Of a stretch of 17,265 nt of DNA, positions 2 to 12,502 are shown in pieces. Source of the DNA: Mycobacterium sp. (GTDB lineage: Bacteria > Actinomycetota > Actinomycetes > Mycobacteriales > Mycobacteriaceae); the NCBI GenBank assembly GCA_025965815.1, contig JAOPWF010000334.1, positions 1-17,265 of the forward strand, in the 5' to 3' direction. The position numbers and the translations under genes were made by a program. Position 1 is the stretch's first letter, and every line of letters begins with the position of its first letter. The notes under the pieces were generated by a model that did no database searches, was not told the origin of the DNA, and was given only the letters and a program-made list of their open reading frames with translations.

Positions 2-994
2 CGCCACGAGTATCTGCGGCAGGTGCCGACGATCACCGACATCCCCGAGGCGCTGCGGACCTTCGCCAGGCGCATCCCGGACTTCCAGCCCGACTCGTGG
101 ATCACGCACGTGTCCGGACATCCGCCCGGCGCACTGCTGACGTTCGTGTGGCTGGACCGCATCGGCCTTTCAGGTGGCGCCTGGGCCGGCACGCTGTGCC
201 TGCTGGTGGGGTCGAGCGCGGCCGCCGCGGTCATCGTCGCGGTGCGCGCGCTGGCCGACCAGCAGACCGCGCGCTGGGCCGCGCCGTTCGTCGCGGTCGC
301 GCCGACGGCGATCTGGGTGGCGGTGTCCGCCGACGGCTATTTCGCCGGCGTGGCCGCCTGGGGCATCGCGCTGCTGGCGCTGGCCGCACGCCAGACCGTG
401 CGCTACCCGGTGCTCGCCGCCGCCGGCGCGGGCCTGCTCCTGGGCTGGGGGATCTTCTTGAACTACGGGCTGGGCCTGGTAGCAGTGCTTGCGCTGGCGA
501 TACTGGCGGCGGCGACAGATTGGCGCGCGGCCCTGCGCGCGCTGGTTCCGGCCGTCGTGCTGGCGCTGGCGGTGGTCGGCGTGTTCGCGATCGCCGGGTT
601 CTGGTGGTTCGACGGCTACACCCTGGTGCAGCAGCGCTATTGGCAGGGCATCGCGAACGACCGACCGTTCCAGTACTGGGTCTGGGGCAACCTGGCCTCG
701 GTGGTCTGCGCTATCGGCCTGGGCAGCGTGGCAGGCATCGGCCGGGCGTTCGACATCGCGGCCATCCGCCGCCGCGCGGGCTTGAATCTGGTGGTGCTCG
801 GTGCGCTGGCCGCAATCCTGTGCGCCGACATGAGCATGCTGAGCAAGGCCGAGACCGAACGCATCTGGCTGCCGTTCATGGTTTGGCTGACCGCCGCCCC
901 CGCACTGTTGCCGCCACGCTCACACCGTTGGTGGCTGGCCCTCAACGTCATCGGCGCCCTGCTGCTGAACCACTACATCTTTACGAACTGGTAG
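2..994 (+). CDS. Polytopic integral membrane protein, GT-C glycosyltransferase-like (Rv0541c-like), 5' end outside window
   Basis: The reading frame is open from the window edge, so the GTG at 23 is probably an internal valine and the gene starts upstream. About 330 C-terminal residues are visible; I recall the M. tuberculosis counterpart Rv0541c as about 450. Near the visible start is the motif HVSGHPPGALL. After it come roughly eight hydrophobic helices separated by short loops, then the charged, conserved-looking stretch KAETERIWLPF just before the last two helices, and the end LLLNHYIFTNW. That layout suits GT-C-type polyprenyl-phosphate-sugar-dependent transferases, but the catalytic first loop lies outside the window, so activity is inferred. 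It is transcribed towards the minus-strand GT2/DUF2064/methyltransferase/Mo-oxidoreductase operon and its last 75 bp overlap the opposing gene. Confident as a real membrane protein gene, less so about the enzyme class. Confidence 0.82.
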   Translation, partial: RHEYLRQVPTITDIPEALRTFARRIPDFQPDSWITHVSGHPPGALLTFVWLDRIGLSGGAWAGTLCLLVGSSAAAAVIVAVRALADQQTARWAAPFVAVAPTAIWVAVSADGYFAGVAAWGIALLALAARQTVRYPVLAAAGAGLLLGWGIFLNYGLGLVAVLALAILAAATDWRAALRALVPAVVLALAVVGVFAIAGFWWFDGYTLVQQRYWQGIANDRPFQYWVWGNLASVVCAIGLGSVAGIGRAFDIAAIRRRAGLNLVVLGALAAILCADMSMLSKAETERIWLPFMVWLTAAPALLPPRSHRWWLALNVIGALLLNHYIFTNW

Positions 995-1387
995 CAGACG
1001 CGCCGCCACCACATACACCGCGGCGCAAACCCACACGATGGCCAGCGAGATCCACAGGCCCAGCGGATAATTGCGATCCAGCACGGTCATGTTGGTCGGC
1101 CGCATACCCGGCTTGTCGAACACCGGCACCGAGAGCAGCACCAGCACCACGCTGCACAAGGCGGCCGCCGCGACCGGCACCCACAGCGCACGCGGCAGAA
1201 TGCGGCGCCCGGCGAAGCCCAGTGCCGCGGACACCGGCGCGAAGACGAAGTCGTGGAGCACCACACCGGCGGCCGCCCACACCGCGATCCGCAACAGGAT
1301 CTGCCACGGGTTCTCGAGCAGCAGCGCTGCCCCGTAGACGCCGAGCGCCAGGCCGCCGAGCATCAGGATCACCCGCACGGCGGTCAC
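920..1387 (-). CDS. Small four-helix integral membrane protein, unknown function
   Basis: This 155-residue protein starts at GTG 1387, which overlaps the TGA of the upstream molybdopterin oxidoreductase as GTGA. A longer upstream reading is only a shadow of that oxidoreductase. Four hydrophobic segments are visible, at about residues 4-24 (ILMLGGLALGVYGAALLL), 29-50, 68-88 and 113-135. The loop between the third and fourth is polar and contains PGMRPTNMTVLDRNYPLG, and the tail is hydrophilic and glutamine-rich. There are no enzyme motifs. Being last in the operon and translationally coupled to the Mo enzyme, it may be a membrane partner or anchor for it; this is inference from position only. 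Its final 75 bp lie antisense to the end of the GT-C-like gene. I do not recognise a named family. Confidence 0.8.
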   Translation of the reverse strand: MTAVRVILMLGGLALGVYGAALLLENPWQILLRIAVWAAAGVVLHDFVFAPVSAALGFAGRRILPRALWVPVAAAALCSVVLVLLSVPVFDKPGMRPTNMTVLDRNYPLGLWISLAIVWVCAAVYVVAARLLPVRKDVVVQQQGADDVEGQPPTV

Positions 1388-2514
1388 TGCACGACCTCGA
1401 TCCGGGTCAGCCACTTCGTTTGCAGCACACCGGGTCTGGTGGGGGCGATCAGCCGGCAGGGGTAACCGTGATCGACACTCAGGGCCTGCCCGTTGATCTT
1501 CAGCGCAATGAGCGTGTTCGAGTCGCGGGCGTGCCGGGCCGGCAGTACCGTGCGTGAATACGGGCCGGGCGGCTCCAGCGAGATCATCCGGACGTCGGCG
1601 TCCGCCGAGGCGCCGACGCTGGCCACCAGGTCCGCCAACACCACCCCGGTCCACTCGGCGTTTGCACTCCAGCCCTCGACGCAGGAAATCGGCAACGAGC
1701 GGGTGGTCTGCGGCAGCGCGCCGAGTTCATCGACGGTGAAGGTGCGGGTGTTGGCCCCGTTGGTCAGTGTCAGCCGGTAGTCCGGCGACTGCGCAGTGCG
1801 CACCACCCCGGCCTCGAGGGCGCTGCGGTTGATCGGAACCCCTTGCGGGCCATGGCCGGAGCGCGGAGCCAGCACCGACACCTTGCGCAGGAGCGGAACC
1901 GTCTGGCCCACCGTCGCCGCGGTGGCGATCCCGACCGCGACCCAGGTGCCGCGCATGATCGCGCGCCGCGACAGGCCGGGACGCGGATGAACGGGCACAC
2001 TGCCGTCGTCGAGCGGCTCCCCGAGTGCGCGGCGGATCGTCGGCAATTTCACGGCGATGTGCACCAGCACCGCGCCGATGGCCACGTACGCCATCGCGTA
2101 ATGCGTTGTGGTGAAGAACCATTTGAACGCGTACCACTGCGCGATGTTGAGCAGCCCGGTGCTGAGCTGAAAGATCACCGATGCCACCAGCACCAGGATC
2201 GAGGCACGCTCGAGCGCGCGGACCGGTGAGCCGATGACGGGGCGCTCGAACAGCTTCGGCCACACCGACCACAGCTTGACCACCAGCAGCGGTATCGCGG
2301 CGATACCGGTCGCGACGTGCATTCCCTGGGTGATCCGGTAGAGCCACACCGGGTGGGTCGGCCAGACGGCTAGGAACCACGGTTGTGGGTGCTGGGTGAG
2401 GTGGCTGATCAGTCCCGTGAGAAAGCAGACGGCGATGGCGATGCCCAGCGCGGTTCCCACCCGCGCCGTGAGCGGCGTCCGGGTCTCACTGAGCTGTCTG
2501 GTCTGATCGGTCAC
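1384..2514 (-). CDS. Membrane-anchored molybdopterin-dependent oxidoreductase (sulfite oxidase/YedY-like fold)
   Basis: 376 residues from GTG 2514, chosen because it overlaps the methyltransferase TGA as GTGA; the 40 residues upstream in frame are a shadow. Residues about 20-165 form four hydrophobic helices resembling a cytochrome b561-like anchor, with histidines at 66, 138 and 152 that could ligate haem. A cytoplasmic-looking linker with SRRAIMRG precedes another hydrophobic stretch at about 190-210, which could be an anchor or export signal. Residues 225-376 match the oxidoreductase molybdopterin-binding domain. It has a cysteine in LPISCVEGW (C278) where the Mo ligand is expected, and the closing GYPCRLIAPTRPG...KWLTRIEV typical of the family. 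It probably transfers electrons between the membrane and an unidentified substrate outside the cell. The substrate cannot be read from sequence. It sits in an operon with glycosyltransferases and a methyltransferase. Confidence 0.9.
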   Translation of the reverse strand: MTDQTRQLSETRTPLTARVGTALGIAIAVCFLTGLISHLTQHPQPWFLAVWPTHPVWLYRITQGMHVATGIAAIPLLVVKLWSVWPKLFERPVIGSPVRALERASILVLVASVIFQLSTGLLNIAQWYAFKWFFTTTHYAMAYVAIGAVLVHIAVKLPTIRRALGEPLDDGSVPVHPRPGLSRRAIMRGTWVAVGIATAATVGQTVPLLRKVSVLAPRSGHGPQGVPINRSALEAGVVRTAQSPDYRLTLTNGANTRTFTVDELGALPQTTRSLPISCVEGWSANAEWTGVVLADLVASVGASADADVRMISLEPPGPYSRTVLPARHARDSNTLIALKINGQALSVDHGYPCRLIAPTRPGVLQTKWLTRIEVVQ

Positions 2515-3140
2515 ACCGCCGCCAGGCTGGCCACCACACGCCCTCCGATCGGGTGGATCGCGGACAGAACCAGGCCGACCTCCTCGGCCAGGGCAGCCGC
2601 GCAGTCGATACCCACTGACGCCCACCGGAACCACGGGCCGATGGTCCGCGACGATTCCAGTCGCACCCAGTCTGAACGGATGCCCGTCGCCTCGGAGTCG
2701 AATTCGGCCACACAGCGGCCACCGCGGCGCAGCAGTTCGGCCGCACGCCGCAGCACCCGGAGCGGGTCGCCGCCGAGCCCGACGTTGCCGTCGGCCAGCA
2801 GCACCGTCTGCCAGCGACCGGTGCCCGGCAGCGGCCCGAAGACGTCACGCCGCAGCGCCGGGGCGCCGCTGCGGCGCGCCAGCCCGATCGCCGTCGCCGA
2901 CTGGTCGACGCCGAGCGCCGGAACTCCGCGCTGAATCAGGTGGGCGACCAACCGTCCGGGCCCACACCCCAGGTCGATGGTCGGGCCGTGGCACAGATCC
3001 ACGATCTAGTTGTCGAACACCTGGTCCGCGTGCCGGCCACCCAGCCAGCTGTGCACCGGCAGCCGATCCAGCGTGCCGTCGTCGTGGCGCACCCAACAGC
3101 GCTCACCGGTCAGCGCCTGGTCGTAGAGATTGCCAAGCAC
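2511..3140 (-). pseudogene. Class I SAM-dependent methyltransferase interrupted by an in-frame TAG
   Basis: Read from GTG 3140, two bases after the TGA of the DUF2064 gene, the frame gives 44 family-like residues (NLYDQALTGERCWVRHDDG, then LPVHSWLGG and DQVFDN). It then meets TAG at 3008-3006 and continues in the same frame to TGA at 2511. Downstream of the TAG come IVDLCHGPTIDLGCGPGRL, with SAM motif I DLGCGPG, then GVDQS, the FGPLPG stretch and the RRGGRCVAEF strand. Without the stop the product would be 209 codons, the expected family size, so this is a single nonsense change and not a fusion of pieces. A GTG at 3002 lies three bases after the TAG and could allow coupled re-initiation of a 163-residue core. 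That core lacks the N-terminal cap but keeps the SAM site. An automatic annotation would probably call only 3002-2511. Substrate unknown. Confidence 0.8.
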
Positions 3141-3141
3141 G

Positions 3142-3813
3142 TCAGATCCCCGCCGCGCGGGTGACCCGATCGAACCGGCTGTCCGGCCCGCATTCCCGCC
3201 GCACCGTGTCGACGTCGCCGACGGTGTCCACGTCCGCCAACTCCTCGACCAACCGCACGTCGATGCCCTGGTCCCGCAGGGCCTTACAGGTCAGATCGCC
3301 CGTGTCCGGCTGGGACATCGGCACCCCTCTCAAACAGTCGGCCAACATCGCCGAGCGGACACCGAGTACCCACCAACCGCCGTCGCGGGCCATACCCAGC
3401 ACCGCCTCGGCGTCGAGCAACGCCGTCGCGCACCGGGTGAGCAGGTCCGCGCTGACCTGGGGGGTGTCCATTCCTATCTGCAGTACCGGCCGATCCCCGG
3501 CCGCGGTGACGGCGTCGACATAGGCGTTGGCGAGCCGGTCGGCGAAGTCGTGGCCGCGCTGGCCGACCACCGTGAAGGCCTCGAGGCGACGCCGGATCTC
3601 GACCGCCGCGCTGGCGTCGTCGAGTTCGCCGGTGAGCGCGACCACCTGGGCGGCAACCGGTGTGGCGGCGACCGCGTCGAGGGTGTCGAGCAGTGCGGCG
3701 GCGGCGATATCGGCGGCGGTCCGGTCGCCGACGGCGGCTGCCAGCCGGGTCTTGGCCAGGCCGGGAACCGGCGCCTTGGCCACGACCAGTGCCGTCACCG
3801 CAACGGACATCAT
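3142..3813 (-). CDS. DUF2064 / TIGR04282-family GT-A-like glycosyltransferase (Rv0540-like)
   Basis: 223 residues from ATG 3813, which overlaps the upstream GT2 stop as ATGA; a second ATG follows immediately. The N-terminus VTALVVAKAPVPGLAKTRLA is the signature of this family, a nucleotide-binding segment resembling nucleotidyltransferases of the GT-A fold. IGMDTPQVS around residues 113-121 is the expected acidic metal-site segment, and LGMARDGGWWVLGV at about 139-152 is the second conserved block. Databases name relatives 'arsenosugar biosynthesis glycosyltransferase', but nothing arsenic-related is nearby, so that name should not be transferred. The tight link to GT2 and the methyltransferase suggests a shared glycan pathway. 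Family assignment is firm, reaction unknown. Confidence 0.9.
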   Translation of the reverse strand: MMSVAVTALVVAKAPVPGLAKTRLAAAVGDRTAADIAAAALLDTLDAVAATPVAAQVVALTGELDDASAAVEIRRRLEAFTVVGQRGHDFADRLANAYVDAVTAAGDRPVLQIGMDTPQVSADLLTRCATALLDAEAVLGMARDGGWWVLGVRSAMLADCLRGVPMSQPDTGDLTCKALRDQGIDVRLVEELADVDTVGDVDTVRRECGPDSRFDRVTRAAGI

Positions 3814-4466
3814 GAGATCACCCGCCAGAAGTCGACGGCCGCGACGACGCTACCGCGCACCGAGCCGCTGACCTTTGACTTGCCACCAGTGCGGGGGCCG
3901 TATGCCACGTCGCGTTCGACTACCCGCCAGCCCGCCGCGGCCGCGCGCACCAGCAATTCGAGCGGATACCCAGACCGGCGGTCGGTTACACCCAGTTCCA
4001 GCAAAGCCTCGCGGCGCGCAACCCGCATCGGAGCGATGTCGTGCACCGGCAGGCCGTGCTTATGACGCAGCCGCCAGGCGACCGCCGCGGTGCCCAACCG
4101 GGCGTGCCACGGCCAGCGCACTCCACGCACCGGGCGCCTGCGGCCGATCGCCATGTCGGCGCCGCGATCGAGTTCGTCGACCAGTCGCGGCAGGTCGCGC
4201 GGGTCGAGCGATCCGTCGCCGTCGATGACCGCGACGATCGGCGTCGCCGCCGCCACCACGCCGGCGTGCACGGCCGAGCCGTAGCCGGGCCGCGCTTCGG
4301 CGACCACGTCGGCGCCGTGGCGACGCGCCACCTCAGCGGTGTCGTCGGTGCTGTTGTTGTCGACCACGAGCGGCCGGTAACCCGTCGGCATCGCGGAAAG
4401 TACTCCGGGGAGCGAGGCTGCCTCGTTGAGACACGGGAGCACCACCGTGACGGGACAGTCGGGCAT
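3810..4466 (-). CDS. Family 2 glycosyltransferase, dolichyl/polyprenyl-phosphate sugar synthase-like (Rv0539-like)
   Basis: 218 residues from ATG 4466. The GT-A nucleotide-sugar site is clear: VTVVLPCLNEAASLPGVL at about 6-23, VVDNNSTDDTAEVA at 34-47, and the metal-binding IDGDGSLDP at 81-89 with D82 and D84. Later YPLELLVRAAAAGWRVVERD matches the acceptor-side region of polyprenyl-phosphate mannosyl/glucosyl transferases. There is no transmembrane helix, so it would act at the inner face of the membrane, plausibly loading a sugar on polyprenyl phosphate for a GT-C enzyme such as the protein at 2-994. It is first in the five-gene operon, with a 105-bp divergent intergenic region shared with the response regulator. 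The sugar specificity cannot be told. Confidence 0.92.
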   Translation of the reverse strand: MPDCPVTVVLPCLNEAASLPGVLSAMPTGYRPLVVDNNSTDDTAEVARRHGADVVAEARPGYGSAVHAGVVAAATPIVAVIDGDGSLDPRDLPRLVDELDRGADMAIGRRRPVRGVRWPWHARLGTAAVAWRLRHKHGLPVHDIAPMRVARREALLELGVTDRRSGYPLELLVRAAAAGWRVVERDVAYGPRTGGKSKVSGSVRGSVVAAVDFWRVIS

Positions 4467-4571
4467 GGATTCAAACGTTAGTCAACCTTTTGAACCAGTG
4501 CGCGCGAGAACCGTGACGAATCGATGACATCACTGCTGGTAGACCCACCTCTTTAGCCCATAACCCGGCTA
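4467..4571. promoter_or_regulatory. Divergent intergenic region between GT2 operon and two-component system, with TTCAAA/TTTGAA inverted repeat
   Basis: This 105-bp AT-richer gap must hold promoters for both directions. An inverted repeat, TTCAAA at 4470-4475 and TTTGAA at 4489-4494, lies 3 to 28 bp upstream of the GT2 start. On the minus strand a TAACGT hexamer sits about 8 bp before the GT2 ATG and could be a -10 element of a nearly leaderless transcript. On the plus strand TAATGT at 4570-4575 could be a -10 for a leaderless start at GTG 4584. These are eye-level matches without conserved -35 boxes, so they are candidates only. Confidence 0.4.
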
Positions 4572-5297
4572 ATGTCAGCAATTGTGACCCGCGTACTCAT
4601 CGCTGACGACGACATTGTCGTGCGCGATGTGGTGCGCCGTTACCTGGAACGCGACGGCCTGGAAGTCTCCGTCGCCCACGACGGCGCCGAAGCGCTGCGG
4701 CTGCTCGGCACCGGACGCATCGACGTCGCGGTACTCGACGTGATGATGCCCGGCCCCGACGGCCTGACGTTGTGCCGGAGTCTGCGGCAGCGCGCGGAAG
4801 GCGGCGGCGACTACTCCGTCCCGGTGATCCTGCTGACCGCGCTCGGCGAAGAGGACGACCGGATCGCCGGACTGGAGGCCGGCGCCGACGACTACCTGAC
4901 CAAGCCGTTCAGCCCCCGGGAGTTGGCCCTGCGGGTCCGTTCGGTGCTGCGCCGCGTCCCTCCGCCGGTGGGCGCGCTGGCGGTGGAGATCACCGTGGGC
5001 GACCTGACCGTCGCCACCGCGGCGCGCGCCGTGCACATCGGCGGTCGGCCGATCGGACTGACCAACCGGGAGTTCGACCTGTTGCTGTTCTTCATCACCC
5101 ACGCCGATACGGTGTTCTCCCGCGAGGAGCTGCTGCAACGGGTGTGGCGGTGGGACTTCGGCGATCTCTCGACGGTGACGGTGCACGTGAAGCGACTGCG
5201 CTCCAAGCTCGGCGACCAGCAGCGGGTTCAGACCGTGTGGGGCCGCGGCTACCTGTGGAGCGGAAGTTGCAGCGGGGGTGAGGATGCGGACAAATGA
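4572..5297 (+). CDS. OmpR/PhoB-family response regulator
   Basis: 241 residues from ATG 4572. The GTG at 4584 would give the equally family-like start VTRVLIADDD, and an A/T-rich TAATGT sits just before it, so the true start is uncertain by four residues. The receiver domain spans about 5-122, with acidic pocket D12-D14, phospho-acceptor D56 in VLDVMMPGPDG, T89 and K111 in YLTKPFSP. A winged-helix domain follows at about 142-232, with LTNREFDLLLFF, SREELLQRVW, the recognition-helix segment STVTVHVKRLRSKLG and the wing VWGRGYLW. It therefore should be a phosphorylation-controlled DNA-binding regulator. Its 3' end overlaps the kinase gene by 20 bp, so they form a cognate pair. Divergent from the GT2 operon, which is a plausible target. 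I cannot equate it with a named M. tuberculosis regulator. Confidence 0.96.
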   Translation: MSAIVTRVLIADDDIVVRDVVRRYLERDGLEVSVAHDGAEALRLLGTGRIDVAVLDVMMPGPDGLTLCRSLRQRAEGGGDYSVPVILLTALGEEDDRIAGLEAGADDYLTKPFSPRELALRVRSVLRRVPPPVGALAVEITVGDLTVATAARAVHIGGRPIGLTNREFDLLLFFITHADTVFSREELLQRVWRWDFGDLSTVTVHVKRLRSKLGDQQRVQTVWGRGYLWSGSCSGGEDADK

Positions 5298-6312
5298 CCT
5301 GTGGGAGATAGTCGGCTGGGCGCTGGCCTGCTCGCTGCCGGTAGTGCTGACCGGTGCGATCGTCATCCGGCTGGCCCGGTCGTGGTCGTTGACCGTCAGC
5401 ATGGTGGCGCTGGTACTGATCCCGGTGGTGGCGACATTCACCGGCATCGTCGGCGCCAGCGGGTTCATGATCAGCGACACGTTCCAGCAGACCGCGGTGG
5501 TGTTGATCATCGTGTCGGTGGTGACCATCCCTGCAGCCGTGATGCTGGCCCGCTACCAGGCCCGAAGGACGGTGTGGGAGCAGCAGATTCGCGACTCCGA
5601 GCGCGCCGCCGAGCAGTCCCGGCGCCGGCTGGTGGCGTTCGTCAGTCATGACCTGCGCACGCCGCTGGCCGGCATCCGCGCGGTTTCCGAGGCCATCGCC
5701 GACGGCGTCGTCCGCGACGGTGAAGTCCGCTCACACGCCAAAACCATTGAACAGGAATCGATTCGGCTCTCTGAGATGGTCGACGACCTGTTCGAGATGT
5801 CGAAGATCAACGCCGGGGCGGTCCAGCCGGCCTACGACAAGGTCGCGCTCGACGAGGTGGTGGACGACGTGCTGTCGGCGCACCGGATCGCCGCCGAGCG
5901 GGCCGGGATTATGCTGAAGGCCCGGCTGCCCGAGACGCCGGTCCGGGTGGTGGGCAGCGGCCGGGCACTGGTTCGGGTGCTGTCGAACCTGGTGGCCAAC
6001 GCCATCGCGCACACCCCCGAGGGCGGCAAGGTCGAACTGGCGCTCGGGTCCGACGAGAACGGGGCCTGGGCGCGGGTCGACGACACCGGGGTCGGGATCG
6101 ACGAGGCCGACCTCGCCCGGGTGTTCGACGTCGCCTACCGCGGCTCCAACGGCCGGATGCCGCGCGCGGACTCGTCGCTGCCCAGCGGTTCGGGCCTCGG
6201 CCTGGCCATCGCCGCGGGCCTGGTGCAGGCGCACCGCGGCACGCTGTCCGCGCACAACCTCGGCACCGGAGCACGCTTCGAGGTGCGGCTGCCGCTGGCC
6301 GCGGAGGATTAG
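5278..6312 (+). CDS. Sensor histidine kinase, three transmembrane helices, no HAMP seen
   Basis: 344 residues from GTG 5278; ATG 5284 is two codons in and has GGGGG about 6 bp before it, so it may be the real start. Hydrophobic helices lie at about 10-31, 38-62 and 70-92. The RLARSW loop between the first two is positively charged, so the N-terminus probably faces outside and only two very short loops leave the membrane. A short helical linker leads to the dimerisation motif FVSHDLRTPLAG with phospho-histidine H124. The ATPase domain has the N box (SNLVANAIAHTPEGG, about 236-250), the G1 box DDTGVGID around 268-275 and the G2 box SGSGLGLAIA around 303-312. Lacking both a sensor domain and a recognisable HAMP, it may sense a change within the membrane or a partner protein. 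Overlaps the response regulator by 20 bp. Confidence 0.95.
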   Translation: MRMRTNDLWEIVGWALACSLPVVLTGAIVIRLARSWSLTVSMVALVLIPVVATFTGIVGASGFMISDTFQQTAVVLIIVSVVTIPAAVMLARYQARRTVWEQQIRDSERAAEQSRRRLVAFVSHDLRTPLAGIRAVSEAIADGVVRDGEVRSHAKTIEQESIRLSEMVDDLFEMSKINAGAVQPAYDKVALDEVVDDVLSAHRIAAERAGIMLKARLPETPVRVVGSGRALVRVLSNLVANAIAHTPEGGKVELALGSDENGAWARVDDTGVGIDEADLARVFDVAYRGSNGRMPRADSSLPSGSGLGLAIAAGLVQAHRGTLSAHNLGTGARFEVRLPLAAED

Positions 6313-6386: not shown

Positions 6387-6803
6387 ATGTCCGGCAAAGG
6401 TCTGCGCAAGTTCAAATTGGAGCGGCAACTGGGCCGCACTTTCATGAACCCGATGGTCTCCGCGCTCGACCGCGTCGGCATCCGGTCGGCGAAGGTGGTC
6501 GAACTGGAAACCACCGGCCGCAAGTCGGGAGCCCCGCGTCGCGTCCCGCTCGCCGCGACCACCGACGCCAAAGGTGTCTGGGTTATCTCCCAGCACGGGC
6601 ACCGGTCCGGGTGGGCGCACAACATCGAGGCCGAGCCGGGGGTCCGGGTCCGCGTCAACAACCAATGGCGCTCCGCGACGGCGACCTTTGAACCCCACGA
6701 CGACGTCGTCGCACGCGGTCGAACCTTCGGGTCCGCCACTGCCGTCGCGCTCAAAGCGATGCAGAGCGACCCCATCTCGGTGCGCCTGACCTTCACCGAT
6801 TAG
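6387..6803 (+). CDS. Nitroreductase/deazaflavin (F420)-dependent oxidoreductase family protein, DUF385-like
   Basis: 138 residues from ATG 6387, supported by GGAGG six bases upstream. The central motif VVELETTGRKSGAPRRVPL (about 37-55), followed by VWVISQHGHRSGWAHNIEA, is characteristic of the mycobacterial Ddn-like family of the split-barrel flavin/F420 fold. In that family the GRKSG segment and the W-H-N region line the cofactor site. Members reduce quinones or nitro compounds with reduced F420, and some bind FMN or haem instead, so the cofactor is inferred. It appears to be a single-gene unit. Its TAG stop directly abuts the opposing nitronate monooxygenase stop. Family assignment is strong, substrate unknown. 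Confidence 0.9.
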   Translation: MSGKGLRKFKLERQLGRTFMNPMVSALDRVGIRSAKVVELETTGRKSGAPRRVPLAATTDAKGVWVISQHGHRSGWAHNIEAEPGVRVRVNNQWRSATATFEPHDDVVARGRTFGSATAVALKAMQSDPISVRLTFTD

Positions 6804-7955
6804 CTAATCCGGCAGCGAGTTACTCAATCGCTCGGTGGCGGCGAGGTAGTCCTGGATGAACGCCAGCACCACGTCGCGGGCCGGCATCACCTCGTTCATC
6901 AGCCCGACGCCCTGCCCGACCCAGTAGGTGGCCAACGCTTGCGCACCGGGATGCCCCTTAGCGGCCAGGGCGTCGACGCGGCGCAACGCGGGCTCGCTGA
7001 TCATCGACTGCAACGGCAGCGGCAGCGGCTGCTTCCCGCCAGCCCAGTCAGGTGGGTGCGGCTGCCACGCATCGGTCCACTCCGACACCAGTTGCCGGGA
7101 TGGTTTCCCGGTGCGCCCGGCCGAGCGGACGGTGTCGCGTGACGTCGCGGCAAGCATCCGTTCGACGGTGTACGGCGCGGTCTCGGCTTCTTCGGTGGTG
7201 AGCCACACCGAGCCCGTCCACGCACCGGCCGCACCCATCGCCACCGCGGCGGCCATCTGCCTGCCGGTGACGATGCCACCCGCTGCCAATACCGGCACCG
7301 CGTCGTCAATCGCCTCCAGCACCTCGGGGATCAGGACCATGGTGGTGACCTCGCCGCAGTGCCCACCGGCCTCGGTGCCCTGCGCGACGATCAGGTCCAC
7401 GCCGGCGTCCACCTGCTTGATTGCGTGCTCTCTGGCGCCGACCAGTGCGGCCACCGGGATGCCGCGCTCCTTGCCCGCCTCGATCATGTAATCCGGTGGC
7501 ACCCCAAGCGCATTCGCGATCAACTTGATCGGATGACTCATCGCCACGTCCAGCAGTTCGCGGCCGGTGTCGCCGGTCAGCGACGGCGCGCCGACCCGGG
7601 CGGTCCGCTCGGTGTCGATGTCGTGGCGGGCCAGCAGGTCGGCGACGAATCTTCGGTAGTCGTCCGGGATCCGCCCGGCGAGCTCGCCGCGGGACAGCTT
7701 CTCGCCCTTGCCCTCGAACTTCGCGGGCACGATGATGTCGGCGCCGTACGGCTTGCCGCGTACGTGGTCGTCGATCCAGGACAGCTCCTGCTCGAGCTGA
7801 TCGGGCGTGTACGCGGTGGCGCCGAGCACACCGAAGCCGCCGGCATTCGTCACCGCCGCAACGACGTCGCGGCAGTGACTGAACGCGAAGAGCGGGAAAT
7901 CGATACCGAACTGCTGACAGATGGCTGGCTTCACGCGCCCAGTATCGCTAGCCAC
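6804..7955 (-). CDS. Nitronate monooxygenase / 2-nitropropane dioxygenase-like FMN enzyme
   Basis: 383 residues if read from GTG 7955, which overlaps the galE3 stop by eight bases. A GTG at 7934 would give the start VKPAICQQFGIDFPLFAFS, closer to my memory of homologues, so the first seven residues are doubtful. The TIM-barrel flavoprotein signatures are visible: AVTNAGGFGVLGA at about 35-46, AQGTEAGGH at 191-199 and the FMN phosphate-binding VLAAGGIVTGRQ followed by GAAGAWTGSVWL at about 222-252. The family oxidises alkyl nitronates using FMN and oxygen, but many mycobacterial members have unknown physiological substrates. It is last of the mtnP-galE3 operon and converges on the nitroreductase-family gene, so two flavin/deazaflavin redox genes meet tail to tail. 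Confidence 0.93.
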   Translation of the reverse strand: MASDTGRVKPAICQQFGIDFPLFAFSHCRDVVAAVTNAGGFGVLGATAYTPDQLEQELSWIDDHVRGKPYGADIIVPAKFEGKGEKLSRGELAGRIPDDYRRFVADLLARHDIDTERTARVGAPSLTGDTGRELLDVAMSHPIKLIANALGVPPDYMIEAGKERGIPVAALVGAREHAIKQVDAGVDLIVAQGTEAGGHCGEVTTMVLIPEVLEAIDDAVPVLAAGGIVTGRQMAAAVAMGAAGAWTGSVWLTTEEAETAPYTVERMLAATSRDTVRSAGRTGKPSRQLVSEWTDAWQPHPPDWAGGKQPLPLPLQSMISEPALRRVDALAAKGHPGAQALATYWVGQGVGLMNEVMPARDVVLAFIQDYLAATERLSNSLPD

Positions 7956-8991
7956 GCAGGGGGGCGAACGCGAATTCGCGCAGCCCGTCGTGCGGGGTCA
8001 CCGCGGCCCGGAAACCGAGCAGCTTCGCCGCCTGCGCCGGGTCGGCGACGATGTGGCGCACGTCGCCACTGCGGTACTGGCCGGTGATTACGGGTGCCAA
8101 CACATGCTCCGCGTCGGAACGGATCTTGCACAGCTCCGCGGCCACCTCCATGATCGAGATGGGCCGTCCGGAGCAGACATTGGCGGCGGTGAAACCGTCG
8201 GGTGCGGCGGTCACCGCGGCCAGGTTGGCCGCCGCGATGTCGTCGACGTGAATGAAATCGCGCATCTGTCCACCGTCTTCGAAAACTTTTGGCGCTTCCC
8301 CCTTTTCGAGAGCGGACCGGAATATCGCGGCGACGCCGGAGTACGGGGTGTCGCGCGGCATACCCGGCCCGTAGACGTTGTGATACCGCAGCGCGACGAC
8401 AGAGCCACCCGTCGCCTCGGCCCACGCCAGCGCGTAGTGCTCCTGAGCGGTCTTGCTGGCGGCGTACAGGCTGCGGGGCCGCAACGGGGCGTCCTCGCCG
8501 ACCAGCCGCCACTGCAGCTCTTCACCGCCCAGCGGGCAACGGTGCTCGAAGATGCCCGCGTCGAGGTCGGCGCGGGTGCGGGGCAGCGGGTCGACCGGTC
8601 CGTGTTCGGGACAGTCGTAGCCGCCCTGGCCGTAGACCACCATCGAGGACGCCAGCACCAGGCGTTCGACGCCCGCGGCGAACATCTGCGCCAGCAGCAC
8701 CGTGGTGCCGTAGTCGTTGTGGCTGCCGTAGGACGGCGCGTCGGCGGCGTTCACCCCGGCCCCCACCACCGCGGCCTGGTGGCACACCACGTCGACGCCG
8801 TCGAGCAGCGGCGCCAGTGCGTCGGCATCGCGGACGTCGAGCCGGTGACAGCCCGGCGGCACCTGGGCCCACGGCCCGTGTGCGGCGGTGAGCATCGCGT
8901 CGACGGCGACCACCTCATGGCCGGCGTCACGCAGCGCGGTGTTCACCTGTGCGCCGATGAAGCCGGCGGCCCCAGTCAGCAGCACCCTCAT
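7948..8991 (-). CDS. galE3: NAD-dependent epimerase/dehydratase (extended SDR), galE3/Rv0536-like
   Basis: 347 residues from ATG 8991, which overlaps the mtnP stop as ATGA. The Rossmann nucleotide-binding motif TGAAGFIGA is at 6-14, with acidic D31 after the second strand as expected for NAD preference. ASSMVVYG at 114-121 carries the catalytic-region serine, and the catalytic pair Y176 and K180 lies in SLYAASKTAQ. RYHNVYGPGMPRDTPYSGV and GGQMRDFIHVDDIA are the substrate-side motifs of UDP-sugar epimerases/dehydratases. The product closely resembles, from memory, M. tuberculosis Rv0536 (galE3). The reaction is probably interconversion of a nucleotide sugar; the exact sugar is not shown. At about 151-156 the stretch is CPLGGEE, where I recall CPxCG in relatives, so one cysteine of a possible zinc knuckle is missing. 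It may supply the glycan genes to the left. Confidence 0.93.
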   Translation of the reverse strand: MRVLLTGAAGFIGAQVNTALRDAGHEVVAVDAMLTAAHGPWAQVPPGCHRLDVRDADALAPLLDGVDVVCHQAAVVGAGVNAADAPSYGSHNDYGTTVLLAQMFAAGVERLVLASSMVVYGQGGYDCPEHGPVDPLPRTRADLDAGIFEHRCPLGGEELQWRLVGEDAPLRPRSLYAASKTAQEHYALAWAEATGGSVVALRYHNVYGPGMPRDTPYSGVAAIFRSALEKGEAPKVFEDGGQMRDFIHVDDIAAANLAAVTAAPDGFTAANVCSGRPISIMEVAAELCKIRSDAEHVLAPVITGQYRSGDVRHIVADPAQAAKLLGFRAAVTPHDGLREFAFAPLRG

Positions 8992-9773
8992 GGCAGGTCG
9001 ATCGGCAGCTTGACGCCCTCGTGCGGCACGCAGTGGGTGCAGGTCCGCTCGGACGCCACCTGGTCGATCGCCTCGTGGACCAGCTTCTTGAACGGCACCA
9101 GGTTGCGCTCGAACTCAGCGAACACATCGACGGCCTTCACGCCGCTGCCGACGTCGATACCGGCGTCCAGATCCGTCACCAGAGCGATTGCGGCGTAACA
9201 CATTTCAAGCTCGCGAGCCAGCACCGCCTCGGGGTAGCCGGTCATGTTGACCAGCGTGAAGCCCTGCGACGCGAACCACCGGCTCTCGGCGCGGGTGGAG
9301 AACCGCGGCCCCTGGATCACTACCATGGTGCCGCCGTCGACGACGCCGGGCAGGTCTGCCGCGGCGGCGCGCAACGTCGGGCAGTACGGGTCGGCGAACT
9401 CGACGTGGATACCGCCGGAGTCGAAATAGGTGTCGGCGCGGGCGCTGGTCCGATCGACCAGCTGATCGGGCACCACCATGGAGCCCGGGCCGAGGTCCGG
9501 CGTGAGGCTGCCGACCGCGCATGGTCCGAAGACGCGCCGCACCCCCAACGCGCGCAGCGCCCACATGTTGGCCCGGTAGGGCACGGTGTGCGGCGAGAAC
9601 TCGTGGTTCACGCCGTGCCGCGGCAGGAACGCCACCTCATGTTCGCCAACGGTGCCGACCGTGATCGGAGCGCTGGGCTCGCCGTACGGGGTGTCGAGGT
9701 TGATGCTGCGGGCGTCCGAACCGAAGAAGGTATAGAAGCCGCTGCCGCCGATGACTCCGAGCATGCCGACCAT
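8988..9773 (-). CDS. mtnP: S-methyl-5'-thioadenosine phosphorylase
   Basis: 261 residues from ATG 9773; a second ATG three codons later (MLGVIGGSGFY) is an alternative start. Family motifs occur in order: phosphate-binding GGSGFY (9-14), PRHG (51-54), GPRFSTRAES (155-164), substrate-side NMTGYPEA (176-183) and the acidic DLD at 201-203 that contacts the adenine base in MTA phosphorylases. The reaction is phosphorolysis of methylthioadenosine to adenine and 5-methylthioribose-1-phosphate in methionine/purine salvage. The M. tuberculosis orthologue (Rv0535) is labelled pnp, but I judge it to be of the MTA phosphorylase type. A cysteine pair (CTHC, 245-248) near the C-terminus is also typical. 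First gene of the mtnP-galE3-NMO operon and divergent from menA with only 30 bp between starts. Confidence 0.97.
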   Translation of the reverse strand: MVGMLGVIGGSGFYTFFGSDARSINLDTPYGEPSAPITVGTVGEHEVAFLPRHGVNHEFSPHTVPYRANMWALRALGVRRVFGPCAVGSLTPDLGPGSMVVPDQLVDRTSARADTYFDSGGIHVEFADPYCPTLRAAAADLPGVVDGGTMVVIQGPRFSTRAESRWFASQGFTLVNMTGYPEAVLARELEMCYAAIALVTDLDAGIDVGSGVKAVDVFAEFERNLVPFKKLVHEAIDQVASERTCTHCVPHEGVKLPIDLP

Positions 9774-9803: not shown

Positions 9804-10676
9804 GTGGCCACCTTTGCCCAGTGGATCGAGGGCGCGCGTCCGCGAACGCTGCCCAACGCCGTCGCCCCGGTGATCGCCGGAACCGGCGCCGCGGCCTGGT
9901 TCGACTCCGCGGTCTGGTGGAAGGCGCTGCTGGCGCTGGTGGTCGCGGTGGCCCTGATCATCGGCGTGAACTACGCCAACGACTACTCCGACGGCATCCG
10001 TGGCACCGACGATGTGCGCGCCGGTCCGCTGCGGCTGGTCGGCTCCCGGCTGGCCGCGCCGCGGGCGGTGCTGACGGCAGCGGTGGTGTGCCTAAGTATC
10101 GCCGCGGTGGCCGGGCTGGTGCTGGCGGCATTCAGCGCGCCGTGGTTGATCGCGGTCGGCGCGGTGTGCATCGCCGGTGCGTGGCTCTACACCGGCGGGT
10201 CGAAGCCATACGGCTACCTCGGCTTCGGCGAGGTAGCGGTGTTCGTTTTCTTCGGTCTGGTGGCCGTGCTGGGCACGCAGTACACCCAGGCACTGCGCAT
10301 CGACTCGGTCGGCGTCGTGCTCGCGGTGGTGATGGGCGCGCTGTCCAGCGCGGTGCTGGTGGCCAATAATTTGCGCGACATTCCGACCGACACCACCGCG
10401 GGCAAGATGACGCTGGCGGTGCGGCTCGGCGACGCCCGCACCCGACTGCTGTACCAGGGTTTGCTGGCGCTGGCCGGGGTGCTGACGCTGGTGCTGATGT
10501 TGACGACGCCATGGTGCGCGGCGGGGCTGGTGGCGGCGCCGCTGGCGATTCGCGCCGCGCTGCCGGTACGCCGCGGACTGGGCGGCAGGGAGCTGATTCC
10601 GGTGCTGCGCGACACCGGCCTGACCATGCTGGTGTGGTCGGTGGCCGTGTCGGCGGCGCTGGCGCTAGCCGGCTGA
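9804..10676 (+). CDS. menA: 1,4-dihydroxy-2-naphthoate polyprenyltransferase
   Basis: 290 residues from GTG 9804, close to the 292 I recall for M. tuberculosis MenA. It is a UbiA-family membrane prenyltransferase with eight or nine hydrophobic helices. The start [20 protein letters not shown] is typical of MenA. The first aspartate-rich motif is [15 protein letters not shown] at 57-70 and the second lies in [14 protein letters not shown] at 188-201; both bind the Mg-diphosphate of the prenyl donor. It joins dihydroxynaphthoate to a polyprenyl chain, giving demethylmenaquinone, the menaquinone precursor. An ATG at 9797 is in another frame and is not the start. No clear ribosome binding site is visible, so a leaderless transcript is possible. 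It fits functionally with the cytochrome c maturation genes at the right. Confidence 0.97.
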
Positions 10677-11138: not shown

Positions 11139-12194
11139 TCAGTCCACGAGGGCGTTGAGCAGTCGGTCGAGGTCGTCGTCGGTGTTGTAGAGATGGAAGC
11201 CGACCCGGACCGCGCCCGCGCGGATCGATGCCCGCAGCGCGGCCCGCTCGAGCCGGTCCGCGGCACCGGCATGTTGCCCGGCCGGGATGGACACGATGGC
11301 CGACGCGTCGTGCGGCAACTGCAGTTCGGTGCGCAGCCGGTTGGCCAGACCGACGGTGTGCGCCTCGACCGCAGCGCGATCCAGCGACGCCAGCCAGGGC
11401 AGCGTCAGACCTGCGGCCAGCGCACTGAACCAGGCCGGCGAGGCGTCGAACCGGCGCGCGCCGCCGGCCAGCCTCAGCGGCAGTCCGTACACCGTGGACC
11501 AGGGTTGTTCGCCGGCATACCAATTGGCGGCGTGCGGGATGAGGCCGTCGATGAGCCGGTCGCTCAGCGACATCCACGCGGTGCCGCGCGGCGCGAGCAG
11601 CCACTTGTAGCCGGCCGCGGCGGTGACGTCGACCCACGCCAGATCGACGCTCTTCCAGCCGAGCGCCTGGGTGACGTCGATGACCGTGAGGGTGTCCGAA
11701 CCGGCCAGGTTGGCCCGAAGCGCACCAAGGTCGATGGTGTTGCCGTTCGCGGACTGCACCAGGCTCGCGGTGACGACGTCGAAGCCGGCCGCGGCGTCGA
11801 TGAGCTCATCGCGGGTGAATTCGGTGACGGTCACGCCGCGGCGGGCCTGGGCCGCGAATGGGAAAGTCACGCTGGTGAATTCACCGACCAGGGTGGCGAC
11901 GCGGCTGCCGTCCGGGATGCCCGCGGCGACCAGGCCCAGTACCGCCGAGACGCTGCCCCCCATCGCAACGGCCTCCACCGGGACACCCGTCAGTGCGGCG
12001 TAGCCTTCGCGGGCGGCGCGCACCGGGTCATCGAACGATGTCGCGTCGAGCGTCCCGGCTTCCCACGAAGCCAGACATCGGTGCAGTGCGTCCATGCTGA
12101 AGCGCGGCGGTAGGCCGAAGGTGGGCGTGTTCAGGAATCCTTCGGCGCCAACGAATTCAGCGCCGAACGCCTGGCGCACGGTGTTGCCCGCCAT
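11139..12194 (-). CDS. Class V aminotransferase-fold PLP-dependent enzyme (cysteine desulfurase/EgtE-like superfamily)
   Basis: 351 residues from ATG 12194, whose A is shared with the TGA of the DUF4229 gene (TGATG). GTG 12197 directly before it is an alternative. Fold-type I features are present: a glycine/serine turn AMGGSVSAVLGLV, the cofactor aspartate segment TVIDVTQALG (DxxQ, about residues 173-176) and the Schiff-base lysine in TAAAGYKWLLAPRGTAW (about residue 197). The later part WYAGEQPWSTVYGLPLRLA and GARRFDASPAW resembles class V enzymes. Relatives include cysteine desulfurases, kynureninase and the ergothioneine C-S lyase EgtE, but no other ergothioneine genes are here, so the substrate is open. 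M. tuberculosis does not, as I recall, carry this gene at the equivalent place. Confidence 0.88.
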   Translation of the reverse strand: MAGNTVRQAFGAEFVGAEGFLNTPTFGLPPRFSMDALHRCLASWEAGTLDATSFDDPVRAAREGYAALTGVPVEAVAMGGSVSAVLGLVAAGIPDGSRVATLVGEFTSVTFPFAAQARRGVTVTEFTRDELIDAAAGFDVVTASLVQSANGNTIDLGALRANLAGSDTLTVIDVTQALGWKSVDLAWVDVTAAAGYKWLLAPRGTAWMSLSDRLIDGLIPHAANWYAGEQPWSTVYGLPLRLAGGARRFDASPAWFSALAAGLTLPWLASLDRAAVEAHTVGLANRLRTELQLPHDASAIVSIPAGQHAGAADRLERAALRASIRAGAVRVGFHLYNTDDDLDRLLNALVD

Positions 12195-12502
12195 CACTCG
12201 TCGGGTGGCGCTTCGCCGCGAAGCCGCGCCCTGAGTTGGTCGCGGTCCTTGCGCCGGCGCTCGTCGACCAGCGCAATGCTGGCGGTGGCGCGTCGGCGCA
12301 GTGGCGCGAAGATCCAGATACCCAGCGGGAGTGCGATCACCAGGGCGAACAGAATCGCGACGACCAGCGGGAAGTCCTCGATGCCGAGCAGTTGGGCCGC
12401 CACGAAGATCGCAGCGCTCAGGACGACAACCAACAGCAGCCGTGCCGCGGTGTAGACCAGCACGTCGATGACCATGCGTGACGTGGAAGGGCGCTCAGAC
12501 AC
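12194..12502 (-). CDS. DUF4229 small membrane protein (Rv0531-like)
   Basis: 102 residues from GTG 12502. Two hydrophobic helices, at about 10-38 (VLVYTAARLLLVVVLSAAIF) and 43-65 (FPLVVAILFALVIALPLGIW), are followed by a basic, highly charged tail (RRKDRDQLRARLRG) that should face the cytoplasm. Size, layout and position beside the Rv0530/Rv0530A-like genes match Rv0531 and the DUF4229 family of unknown function. Its stop overlaps the aminotransferase start, so the two are probably cotranscribed. It is divergent from the 54-residue gene, with 49 bp between starts. No strong ribosome binding site is visible before the GTG. Confidence 0.87.
   Translation of the reverse strand: MSERPSTSRMVIDVLVYTAARLLLVVVLSAAIFVAAQLLGIEDFPLVVAILFALVIALPLGIWIFAPLRRRATASIALVDERRRKDRDQLRARLRGEAPPDE

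What the first reader, a model, noticed from the sequence alone, without database searches (positions are those of the whole stretch)
2..6312. Uncharacterised glycan-type locus joining two GT-A enzymes, a methyltransferase, a membrane Mo oxidoreductase, a GT-C-like protein and a two-component system
Five minus-strand genes are chained by stop/start overlaps or a 1-base gap. A GT-C-like membrane protein converges on them and a two-component system diverges from their promoter. A polyprenyl-phosphate-sugar synthase-like GT2 plus a GT-C-like protein is a known logic for building extracytoplasmic glycans. A membrane-bound molybdopterin enzyme in the same unit is unexpected and suggests an oxidised or reduced glycan/lipid product outside the cell. 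I recall similar gene sets in other actinobacteria, but no assigned product.
Basis: partly seen in the sequence, partly recalled or inferred. Interest (0 to 1): 0.7.

Follow-up and report, generated by a model that had tools for sequence, protein, structure and literature searches.

The report
Sulfur-sugar cap locus with molybdenum enzyme
This looks like an enlarged version of the gene set that puts a sulfur-containing sugar (methylthioxylose) on the surface of mycobacteria, with a built-in membrane molybdenum enzyme and its own sensor system, and much the same set turns up in distant actinobacteria such as Streptomyces.

Summary
The gene set is real and strongly conserved, but its core most likely has a known product. 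The GT2 and the GT-C protein stand where MtxS (Rv0539) and MtxT (Rv0541c), which put methylthioxylose (MTX) on M. tuberculosis lipoarabinomannan, are expected; the locus goes on past the given end to a GalE-like epimerase and an MTA phosphorylase, which fit a sulfur pentose. New are the extra parts: a cytochrome-b-like/sulfite-oxidase-fold fusion (MOX), a 4-TM partner, a methyltransferase (interrupted by a stop in this MAG) and a two-component system. In 151 genomes of the family GT2 and GT-C occur in the same 59; MOX occurs in 55 of those and in no other (E <= 1e-20). In 296 genomes of the phylum 27 of 32 with MOX have the GT-C; the other five have MOX beside at least one other gene of the set. 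A TGAC-N7-TGAC repeat lies before GT2 in 82 of 85 loci with the regulator nearby and 2 of 15 without. Best reading: MOX is a quinone-linked sulfur-redox enzyme outside the membrane that works on the MTX cap or its sulfoxide, more likely as a reductase. That step is inferred.

The parts
2..994 (+). GT-C glycosyltransferase, MtxT-like (5' end cut by contig)
   Evidence: alignment A1; model of the M. rhodesiae copy matches GT-C enzymes ArnT, AftA, AftB, AftD, Emb, PimE; eight of the 120 listed relatives of the M. simulans copy are named methylthioxylose transferase by one source, JGI
920..1387 (-). 4-TM membrane partner of MOX (MEM); overlaps the GT-C 3' end
   Evidence: follows MOX type A; homologous to the small membrane protein that follows MOX type B (hhalign prob 96.3, E 1.7e-9)
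1384..2514 (-). MOX: cytochrome-b-like membrane domain fused to a sulfite-oxidase-fold molybdopterin domain
2511..3002 (-). SAM methyltransferase core (C-terminal piece)
   Evidence: PF13649 28.3 bits, cut-off 27; conserved neighbour
3006..3008 (-). in-frame TAG that interrupts the methyltransferase gene
3009..3140 (-). cut-off N-terminal piece of the methyltransferase frame
3142..3813 (-). DUF2064 / TIGR04282-like GT-A-fold protein, proposed pentose-1-phosphate nucleotidyltransferase
   Evidence: PF09837 101 bits; TIGR04282 121.5 bits, below its 134 cut-off; PDB 3cgx
3810..4466 (-). GT2, MtxS-like polyprenyl-phosphate-sugar synthase
   Evidence: PF00535 69 bits; same 59 genomes as the GT-C
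4514..4528 (+). direct repeat TGAC-N7-TGAC, predicted operator of the response regulator
   Evidence: 63 of 65 GT2/RR gaps, window included; present in 82 of 85 loci with RR within 8 kb, 2 of 15 without
4572..5297 (+). OmpR/PhoB-type response regulator
   Evidence: PF00072, PF00486
5278..6312 (+). membrane histidine kinase
   Evidence: PF00512, PF02518
7948..8991 (-). GalE-like NAD-dependent epimerase, proposed ribo-to-xylo epimerase
   Evidence: TIGR01179 115.7 bits, below its 262 cut-off; near the core in 58 of 80 named loci and 18 of 20 distant ones
8988..9773 (-). 5'-methylthioadenosine phosphorylase
   Evidence: NF005876 484 bits, cut-off 306
9804..10676 (+). menA, syntenic anchor, not part of the pathway
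   Evidence: NF004751 428 bits

Best explanation
An enlarged methylthioxylose-type (MTX) surface-cap locus. Proposed path: MTA phosphorylase frees 5-methylthioribose-1-phosphate; the DUF2064 protein activates it with a nucleotide; the GalE-like enzyme turns ribo into xylo; the GT2 (MtxS-like) moves it to polyprenyl phosphate; after flipping, the GT-C (MtxT-like) adds it to an envelope glycan. MOX, with its 4-TM partner, then works on the sulfur of that cap outside the membrane: electrons pass between the quinone pool, the cytochrome-b-like part and the Mo site, most likely reducing the sulfoxide (MSX) back to MTX, less likely oxidising MTX. The two-component system controls the unit through TGAC-N7-TGAC. 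Shown: gene content, linkage, co-occurrence, MTAP family, folds of models, motif. Inferred: order of steps, nucleotide, substrate and direction of MOX, haem and quinone, binding of the regulator, role of the methyltransferase (perhaps methylation of the sugar).
For: MtxS=Rv0539 and MtxT=Rv0541c are the named MTX enzymes (passage of PMC8780516). M. simulans carries GT-C, DUF2064, GT2, epimerase, MTAP and menA in the window's order and orientation, and eight listed relatives of its GT-C are named methylthioxylose transferase by JGI. MTAP is an equivalog hit. MTX and its sulfoxide MSX both occur on M. tuberculosis LAM (passages of PMC8531672). MOX (E <= 1e-20) occurs in 55 of the 59 family genomes with GT-C and in 0 of 92 without; in at least seven genera one sampled genome lacks both while congeners have both (rows). 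In the phylum sample 27 of 32 MOX genomes have the GT-C (p 3e-26), and the other five have MOX by at least one other gene of the set, four of them by GT2 and epimerase. Two MOX types (B is 36-39% identical to the window's A in the named loci) stand between GT-C and methyltransferase with homologous membrane partners. Fold: sulfite-oxidase/MsrP domain plus a di-haem-cytochrome-b-like domain. The repeat tracks the regulator and lies between MOX and GT-C in 6 of 7 Streptomyces-type loci.
Against: No chemistry. [quoted passage not shown] its MTX-directed antibody S4-20 gave no detectable signal with M. fortuitum, M. smegmatis LAM, nor the Gordonia, Nocardia, Rhodococcus and Tsukamurella strains tested, yet M. 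peregrinum, a fast grower, has the whole locus, so the product may differ or be modified. MTAP is in only 2 of 20 distant loci and in 15 family genomes without GT-C. MOX is dispensable: 17 of 80 named loci lack it nearby, and 9 of the 15 of these that were searched have no type B match in the genome, many of them drafts; 4 of 59 family and 8 of 35 phylum genomes with GT-C lack MOX. MOX is far below the curated MsrP and sulfite-dehydrogenase cut-offs. The cytochrome-b match is weak taken alone. Direct alignment with Rv0539/Rv0541c was not done.
Confidence: 0.5

Rival explanations
1. The pathway makes an MTX-type cap, but MOX oxidises MTX to the sulfoxide MSX as a maturation step instead of repairing it.
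For: MSX is reported on all four M. tuberculosis LAM samples of PMC8531672 (passages); most sulfite-oxidase-fold enzymes that match are oxidases or dehydrogenases by name; absence of an MTX-antibody signal in fast growers would fit a modified cap.
Against: The Mo-ligand stretch is CVEGW in 103 of 103 loci, like the CVE-W of MsrP and unlike CAGNR of sulfite oxidases (both recalled); sources name Streptomyces relatives DMSO/TMAO reductase YedYZ (by similarity only).
Confidence: 0.25
2. MOX is a general extracytoplasmic methionine-sulfoxide reductase (MsrPQ-like) that only shares regulation with the cap genes.
For: Fold and fused cytochrome-b-like part resemble MsrP plus MsrQ; an adjoining two-component system recalls E. 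coli HprRS-msrPQ (recalled).
Against: All 55 family genomes with MOX have the GT-C/GT2 pair although in 17 of them MOX is more than 10 kb away or on another contig, which is odd for a general repair enzyme; MsrP cut-off not met (34 of 207 bits).
Confidence: 0.15
3. Outside slow-growing mycobacteria the pathway makes another pentofuranose cap without sulfur; MTAP is a syntenic neighbour by chance and MOX acts on another group.
For: MTAP missing from 18 of 20 distant loci; extracytoplasmic pentofuranose systems with auxiliary epimerases are known (PMC11127046, passages); little MTX in fast growers.
Against: MTAP is within 10 kb of the GT-C in 36 of 53 family genomes with both; the M. simulans GT-C and GT2 are 76% and 77% identical to the window's.
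Confidence: 0.2

Closest known systems
MtxS/MtxT methylthioxylose capping of LAM (M. tuberculosis Rv0539, Rv0541c)
   Same: GT2 plus GT-C, DUF2064 between them, epimerase, MTA phosphorylase and menA in the same order (M. simulans as stand-in)
   Different: Adds MOX, 4-TM partner, methyltransferase, two-component system and direct repeat at the locus; found also in Streptomyces-type genomes
MsrPQ with HprRS (E. coli; recalled)
   Same: Sulfite-oxidase-fold Mo enzyme with haem membrane part and an OmpR-type two-component system
   Different: Both parts fused in one chain, own 4-TM partner, tied to a glycan pathway; below the MsrP cut-off
Three-component pentofuranose systems (PMC11127046, passages)
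   Same: Polyprenyl-phosphate pentofuranose donor, epimerase, GT-C transferase outside the membrane
   Different: Their lipid donor comes from PRPP through a UbiA-type enzyme; here a GT2 and a DUF2064 protein
'Arsenosugar' families TIGR04282/TIGR04283 (NCBIfam names)
   Same: DUF2064 and GT2 relatives; a 5-heteroatom pentose is handled in both (inference)
   Different: DUF2064 here is below the TIGR04282 cut-off; sulfur instead of arsenic proposed

Membership tests
MTX capping pathway (MtxS/MtxT) | MtxT-type GT-C protein | tested here: met
   82% identical to the M. rhodesiae copy, 76% to the M. simulans copy, eight listed relatives of which JGI names methylthioxylose transferase
MTX capping pathway (MtxS/MtxT) | direct alignment with Rv0539 and Rv0541c | not tested
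   those sequences were not fetched; correspondence rests on synteny and recalled gene order
MTX capping pathway (MtxS/MtxT) | MTA phosphorylase in the locus | tested here: met
   NF005876 484 of 306 bits; but only 2 of 20 in distant loci
MTX capping pathway (MtxS/MtxT) | MTX on an envelope glycan | not testable with these tools
   no chemistry; fast growers reported with little if any MTX
Sulfite-oxidase-fold Mo enzymes (PF00174) | domain and fold | tested here: met
Sulfite-oxidase-fold Mo enzymes (PF00174) | conserved Mo-ligand Cys | tested here: met
   Cys278 in CVEGW, 103 of 103; ligand role recalled
MsrP (NF003767) | curated equivalog score | tested here: not met
   34.2 of 207 bits
SoxC / SorA / SorT sulfite dehydrogenases | curated equivalog scores | tested here: not met
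   54.4/420, 36.9/600, 24.3/570 bits
b-type cytochrome membrane domain | fold and conserved His ligands | tested here: inconclusive
GT-C superfamily | fold | tested here: met
PpgS polyprenyl-phospho-GalNAc synthase | curated equivalog score | tested here: not met
   49.7 of 370 bits
TIGR04282 (DUF2064) | curated score | tested here: not met
   121.5 of 134 bits; PF09837 met with 101 of 25.8

The most novel reading that the evidence does not exclude
Actinobacteria carry a renewable antioxidant sugar coat: a thioether pentose cap takes up oxidant as sulfoxide, and a dedicated quinol-driven cytochrome-b/molybdenum enzyme reduces it back, the whole set being switched by its own two-component system through TGAC-N7-TGAC. 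The methylthioxylose of M. tuberculosis would be a remnant of this phylum-wide system, with its Mo enzyme moved elsewhere (gene neighbourhood in M. simulans and M. lacus fits Rv0218-Rv0219, recalled).
Probability: 0.3. Interest if true: 0.85.

Novelty: new variant of a known kind. Interest (0 to 1): 0.7.

Why it matters
MTX is targeted in tuberculosis diagnosis (PMC6258851, passages), yet, as far as I know, its early steps, the origin of its sulfoxide form and its purpose are open; the founding paper (Angala 2017) was not held, so I cannot say what it already assigns to the neighbouring genes. The locus gives a candidate for each: DUF2064 and epimerase for activation, MOX for the sulfoxide/thioether balance, a sensor pair for control. 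It also predicts a related envelope pathway in Streptomyces and other actinobacteria; the listings (16 of 17, 40 of 165 and 15 of 96 papers shown) held no title on MTX outside mycobacteria.

Tried and rejected
A wider regulon: the strict repeat pattern occurs four times in the MAG (reversed control 0), once just before a secreted thioredoxin-like gene beside a DsbD_TM gene, but that site is not conserved: 2 of 28 orthologue loci, own included, and the second has another spacer; 2 of 30 loci could not be read. Dropped. The other two sites lie near MlaE-type and GlgE/GlgB genes and were not followed. Repeat before MOX genes (24 loci, mostly MOX away from GT2): within 200 bases upstream of MOX in two (L051, and L038 with a poor spacer), about 780 bases upstream between GT-C and methyltransferase in two (L043, L045); 16 of 24 have no site in the fetched stretch. 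The repeat was not found in the 13 distant loci L237-L249 outside the Streptomyces group, apart from one in L238 away from these promoters. A viral origin: 33 pattern matches but no GT2 relative in viral contigs. A search for arsenosugar with MTA phosphorylase found no paper. The control genomes of one family search did not give me M. tuberculosis (one search names only four that match). An older review (PMC3229680, passages) proposed Rv0541c as a candidate PIM mannosyltransferase; the MtxT naming is later. Plain sulfite dehydrogenase or MsrP membership: cut-offs not met. Rows left out of the count: second fragments of one match or weaker second copies (13 MOX, 4 GT-C and 9 MTAP rows); no genome was dropped. 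Loci L035 and L075 are the same genome, so counts over loci hold that genome twice; two of the 20 distant loci (L231, L232) are from one genome.
Full report
What is there. The window is a contig of an 81%-complete MAG (5.66 Mb, 877 contigs); its proteins are most like those of Mycobacterium/Mycolicibacterium loci (GT-C up to 84% identical). The methyltransferase frame is interrupted by a TAG at 3006-3008; 70 of 70 fetched relatives with 60% identity or more are open there, so intact copies exist and this one is broken or mis-assembled.

The core is most likely the MTX pathway. A figure legend in PMC8780516 (passage) names MtxS = Rv0539 (makes the lipid-linked MTX) and MtxT = Rv0541c (transfers it to LAM caps). 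I did not fetch the M. tuberculosis genes. In M. simulans the order GT-C, (permease-like insertion), DUF2064, GT2, two further long ORFs, epimerase, MTA phosphorylase, menA matches what I recall of Rv0541c-Rv0534c. One source (JGI) names eight of the 120 listed relatives (81-84% identical) of the M. simulans GT-C 'methylthioxylose transferase'. The window's GT-C aligns along its 330 residues with 82% identity to the M. rhodesiae protein, whose model (12 sequences, pLDDT 79) has the GT-C fold. The MTA phosphorylase is a clear equivalog hit and the neighbour is a GalE-like epimerase below the GalE cut-off. MTA phosphorylase plus a ribo/xylo epimerase is what a 5-methylthio-xylose needs (inference).

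Linkage and co-occurrence. In 151 genomes of the family (own included) GT2 and GT-C each occur in 59, the same 59, within 10 kb in 58. MOX (E <= 1e-20, both types) occurs in 55, all among the 59; 38 of 55 lie within 10 kb of the GT-C, 17 are farther away or on another contig. The methyltransferase: 52, of which 51 among the 59. MTA phosphorylase: 68, of which 53 among the 59; 36 of 53 within 10 kb. Relatedness inflates Fisher values, so note that one sampled genome of each of genera g1, g6, g9, g11, g16, g22 and g30 lacks both MOX and GT-C while congeners have both (rows), and that three of these (G099, G015, G030) keep MTA phosphorylase. In 80 named loci (best 80 of 584 found) MOX type A stands in 44, a 36-39% identical type B in 19, none nearby in 17; some loci end at contig ends, so counts are lower bounds. 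Type B sits between GT-C and methyltransferase on the other strand, followed by a membrane protein homologous to the one after type A (14 of 19 loci in exactly this order). Of the 17 without MOX nearby, 15 were searched genome-wide with type B: 6 have it elsewhere, 9 show no match.

Phylum. With the GT-C profile 35 of 296 sampled genomes (22 of 198 genera) match. In 20 loci fetched around these matches (19 genomes) profiles find MOX in 17 (one weak), GT2, DUF2064 and epimerase in 18 each, methyltransferase and regulator in 16 each, MTA phosphorylase in 2. One group is Streptomyces, by the names of 79-92% identical relatives of one of its MOX proteins. With the MOX profile 32 of 296 match; 27 overlap with the GT-C set, eight genomes have only the GT-C, five only MOX. 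MOX of those five still lies beside other genes of the set: GT2 and epimerase in four, with methyltransferase, DUF2064 and both regulator genes in two of them; in the fifth, on a 4-kb contig, only a kinase and the 4-TM gene.

Why the sulfur of the cap. PMC8531672 (passages) reports MTX and the sulfoxide MSX on all four M. tuberculosis LAM samples; PMC10503756 (passages) notes proposed anti-oxidative properties of MTX and lists a paper whose title, cut in the passage, speaks of a natural carbohydrate substrate for an M. tuberculosis methionine sulfoxide enzyme (title only seen). A Mo enzyme of a fold known for S-oxide chemistry that is found only with the MTX-type genes is therefore most simply an MTX/MSX redox enzyme. 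This is a lead, not a test.

Control. The 77-111-base gap between GT2 and the regulator holds TGAC-N7-TGAC in 63 of 65 sequences, window included (shuffle expectation 0.055; other spacings from 3 to 15 found in 0-4). Within 250 bases upstream of GT2 it is found in 82 of 85 loci with the regulator within 8 kb and in 2 of 15 without; one of the two (L128) ends just past GT2. In Streptomyces-type loci TGACGAA-N4-TGAC lies between MOX and GT-C in 6 of 7; it was not found in the promoters of the 13 other distant loci. An 11-base direct repeat is usual for OmpR/PhoB regulators (recalled).

Against. [quoted passage not shown] fortuitum, M. smegmatis LAM, Gordonia, Nocardia, Rhodococcus or Tsukamurella. 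The locus is nevertheless present in many fast growers, M. peregrinum among them. Either the cap is masked (sulfoxide, extra methyl), sits on another glycan, is not expressed, or is another sugar. Streptomyces is not known to me to make LAM, so the acceptor must differ there. The founding MTX paper (Angala 2017) was not held, so part of the pathway proposed here may already be in it.

Verdict. A real, conserved, enlarged variant of a known capping pathway. The core assignment is fairly safe (about 0.7), the MOX substrate is a good guess (about 0.5), its direction is open.

Noticed in passing
window 3006-3008: In-frame TAG in the methyltransferase, absent from 70 of 70 fetched relatives; lesion or assembly error
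   Followed up: partly
window 6387-7955: F420H2-dependent quinone-reductase-like gene and a FabK/nitronate-monooxygenase-like gene are frequent neighbours (18 and 58 of 80 loci); role unknown
   Followed up: no
L131:11361-12611: M. simulans has a permease-like gene inserted between GT-C and DUF2064
   Followed up: no
L133 6024-7013 and 10364-11353: M. sediminis has two GT-C copies about 4 kb apart
   Followed up: no
L231 and L232 (both G343): One Streptomyces-type genome has two GT-C/MOX loci with split gene content
   Followed up: no
L176:1501 (own genome C71:14688): Strict copy of the repeat just before a secreted thioredoxin-like gene; not conserved in relatives
   Followed up: yes
window 11139-12197: Class V aminotransferase-like gene on the minus strand; no NCBIfam cut-off reached
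   Followed up: no
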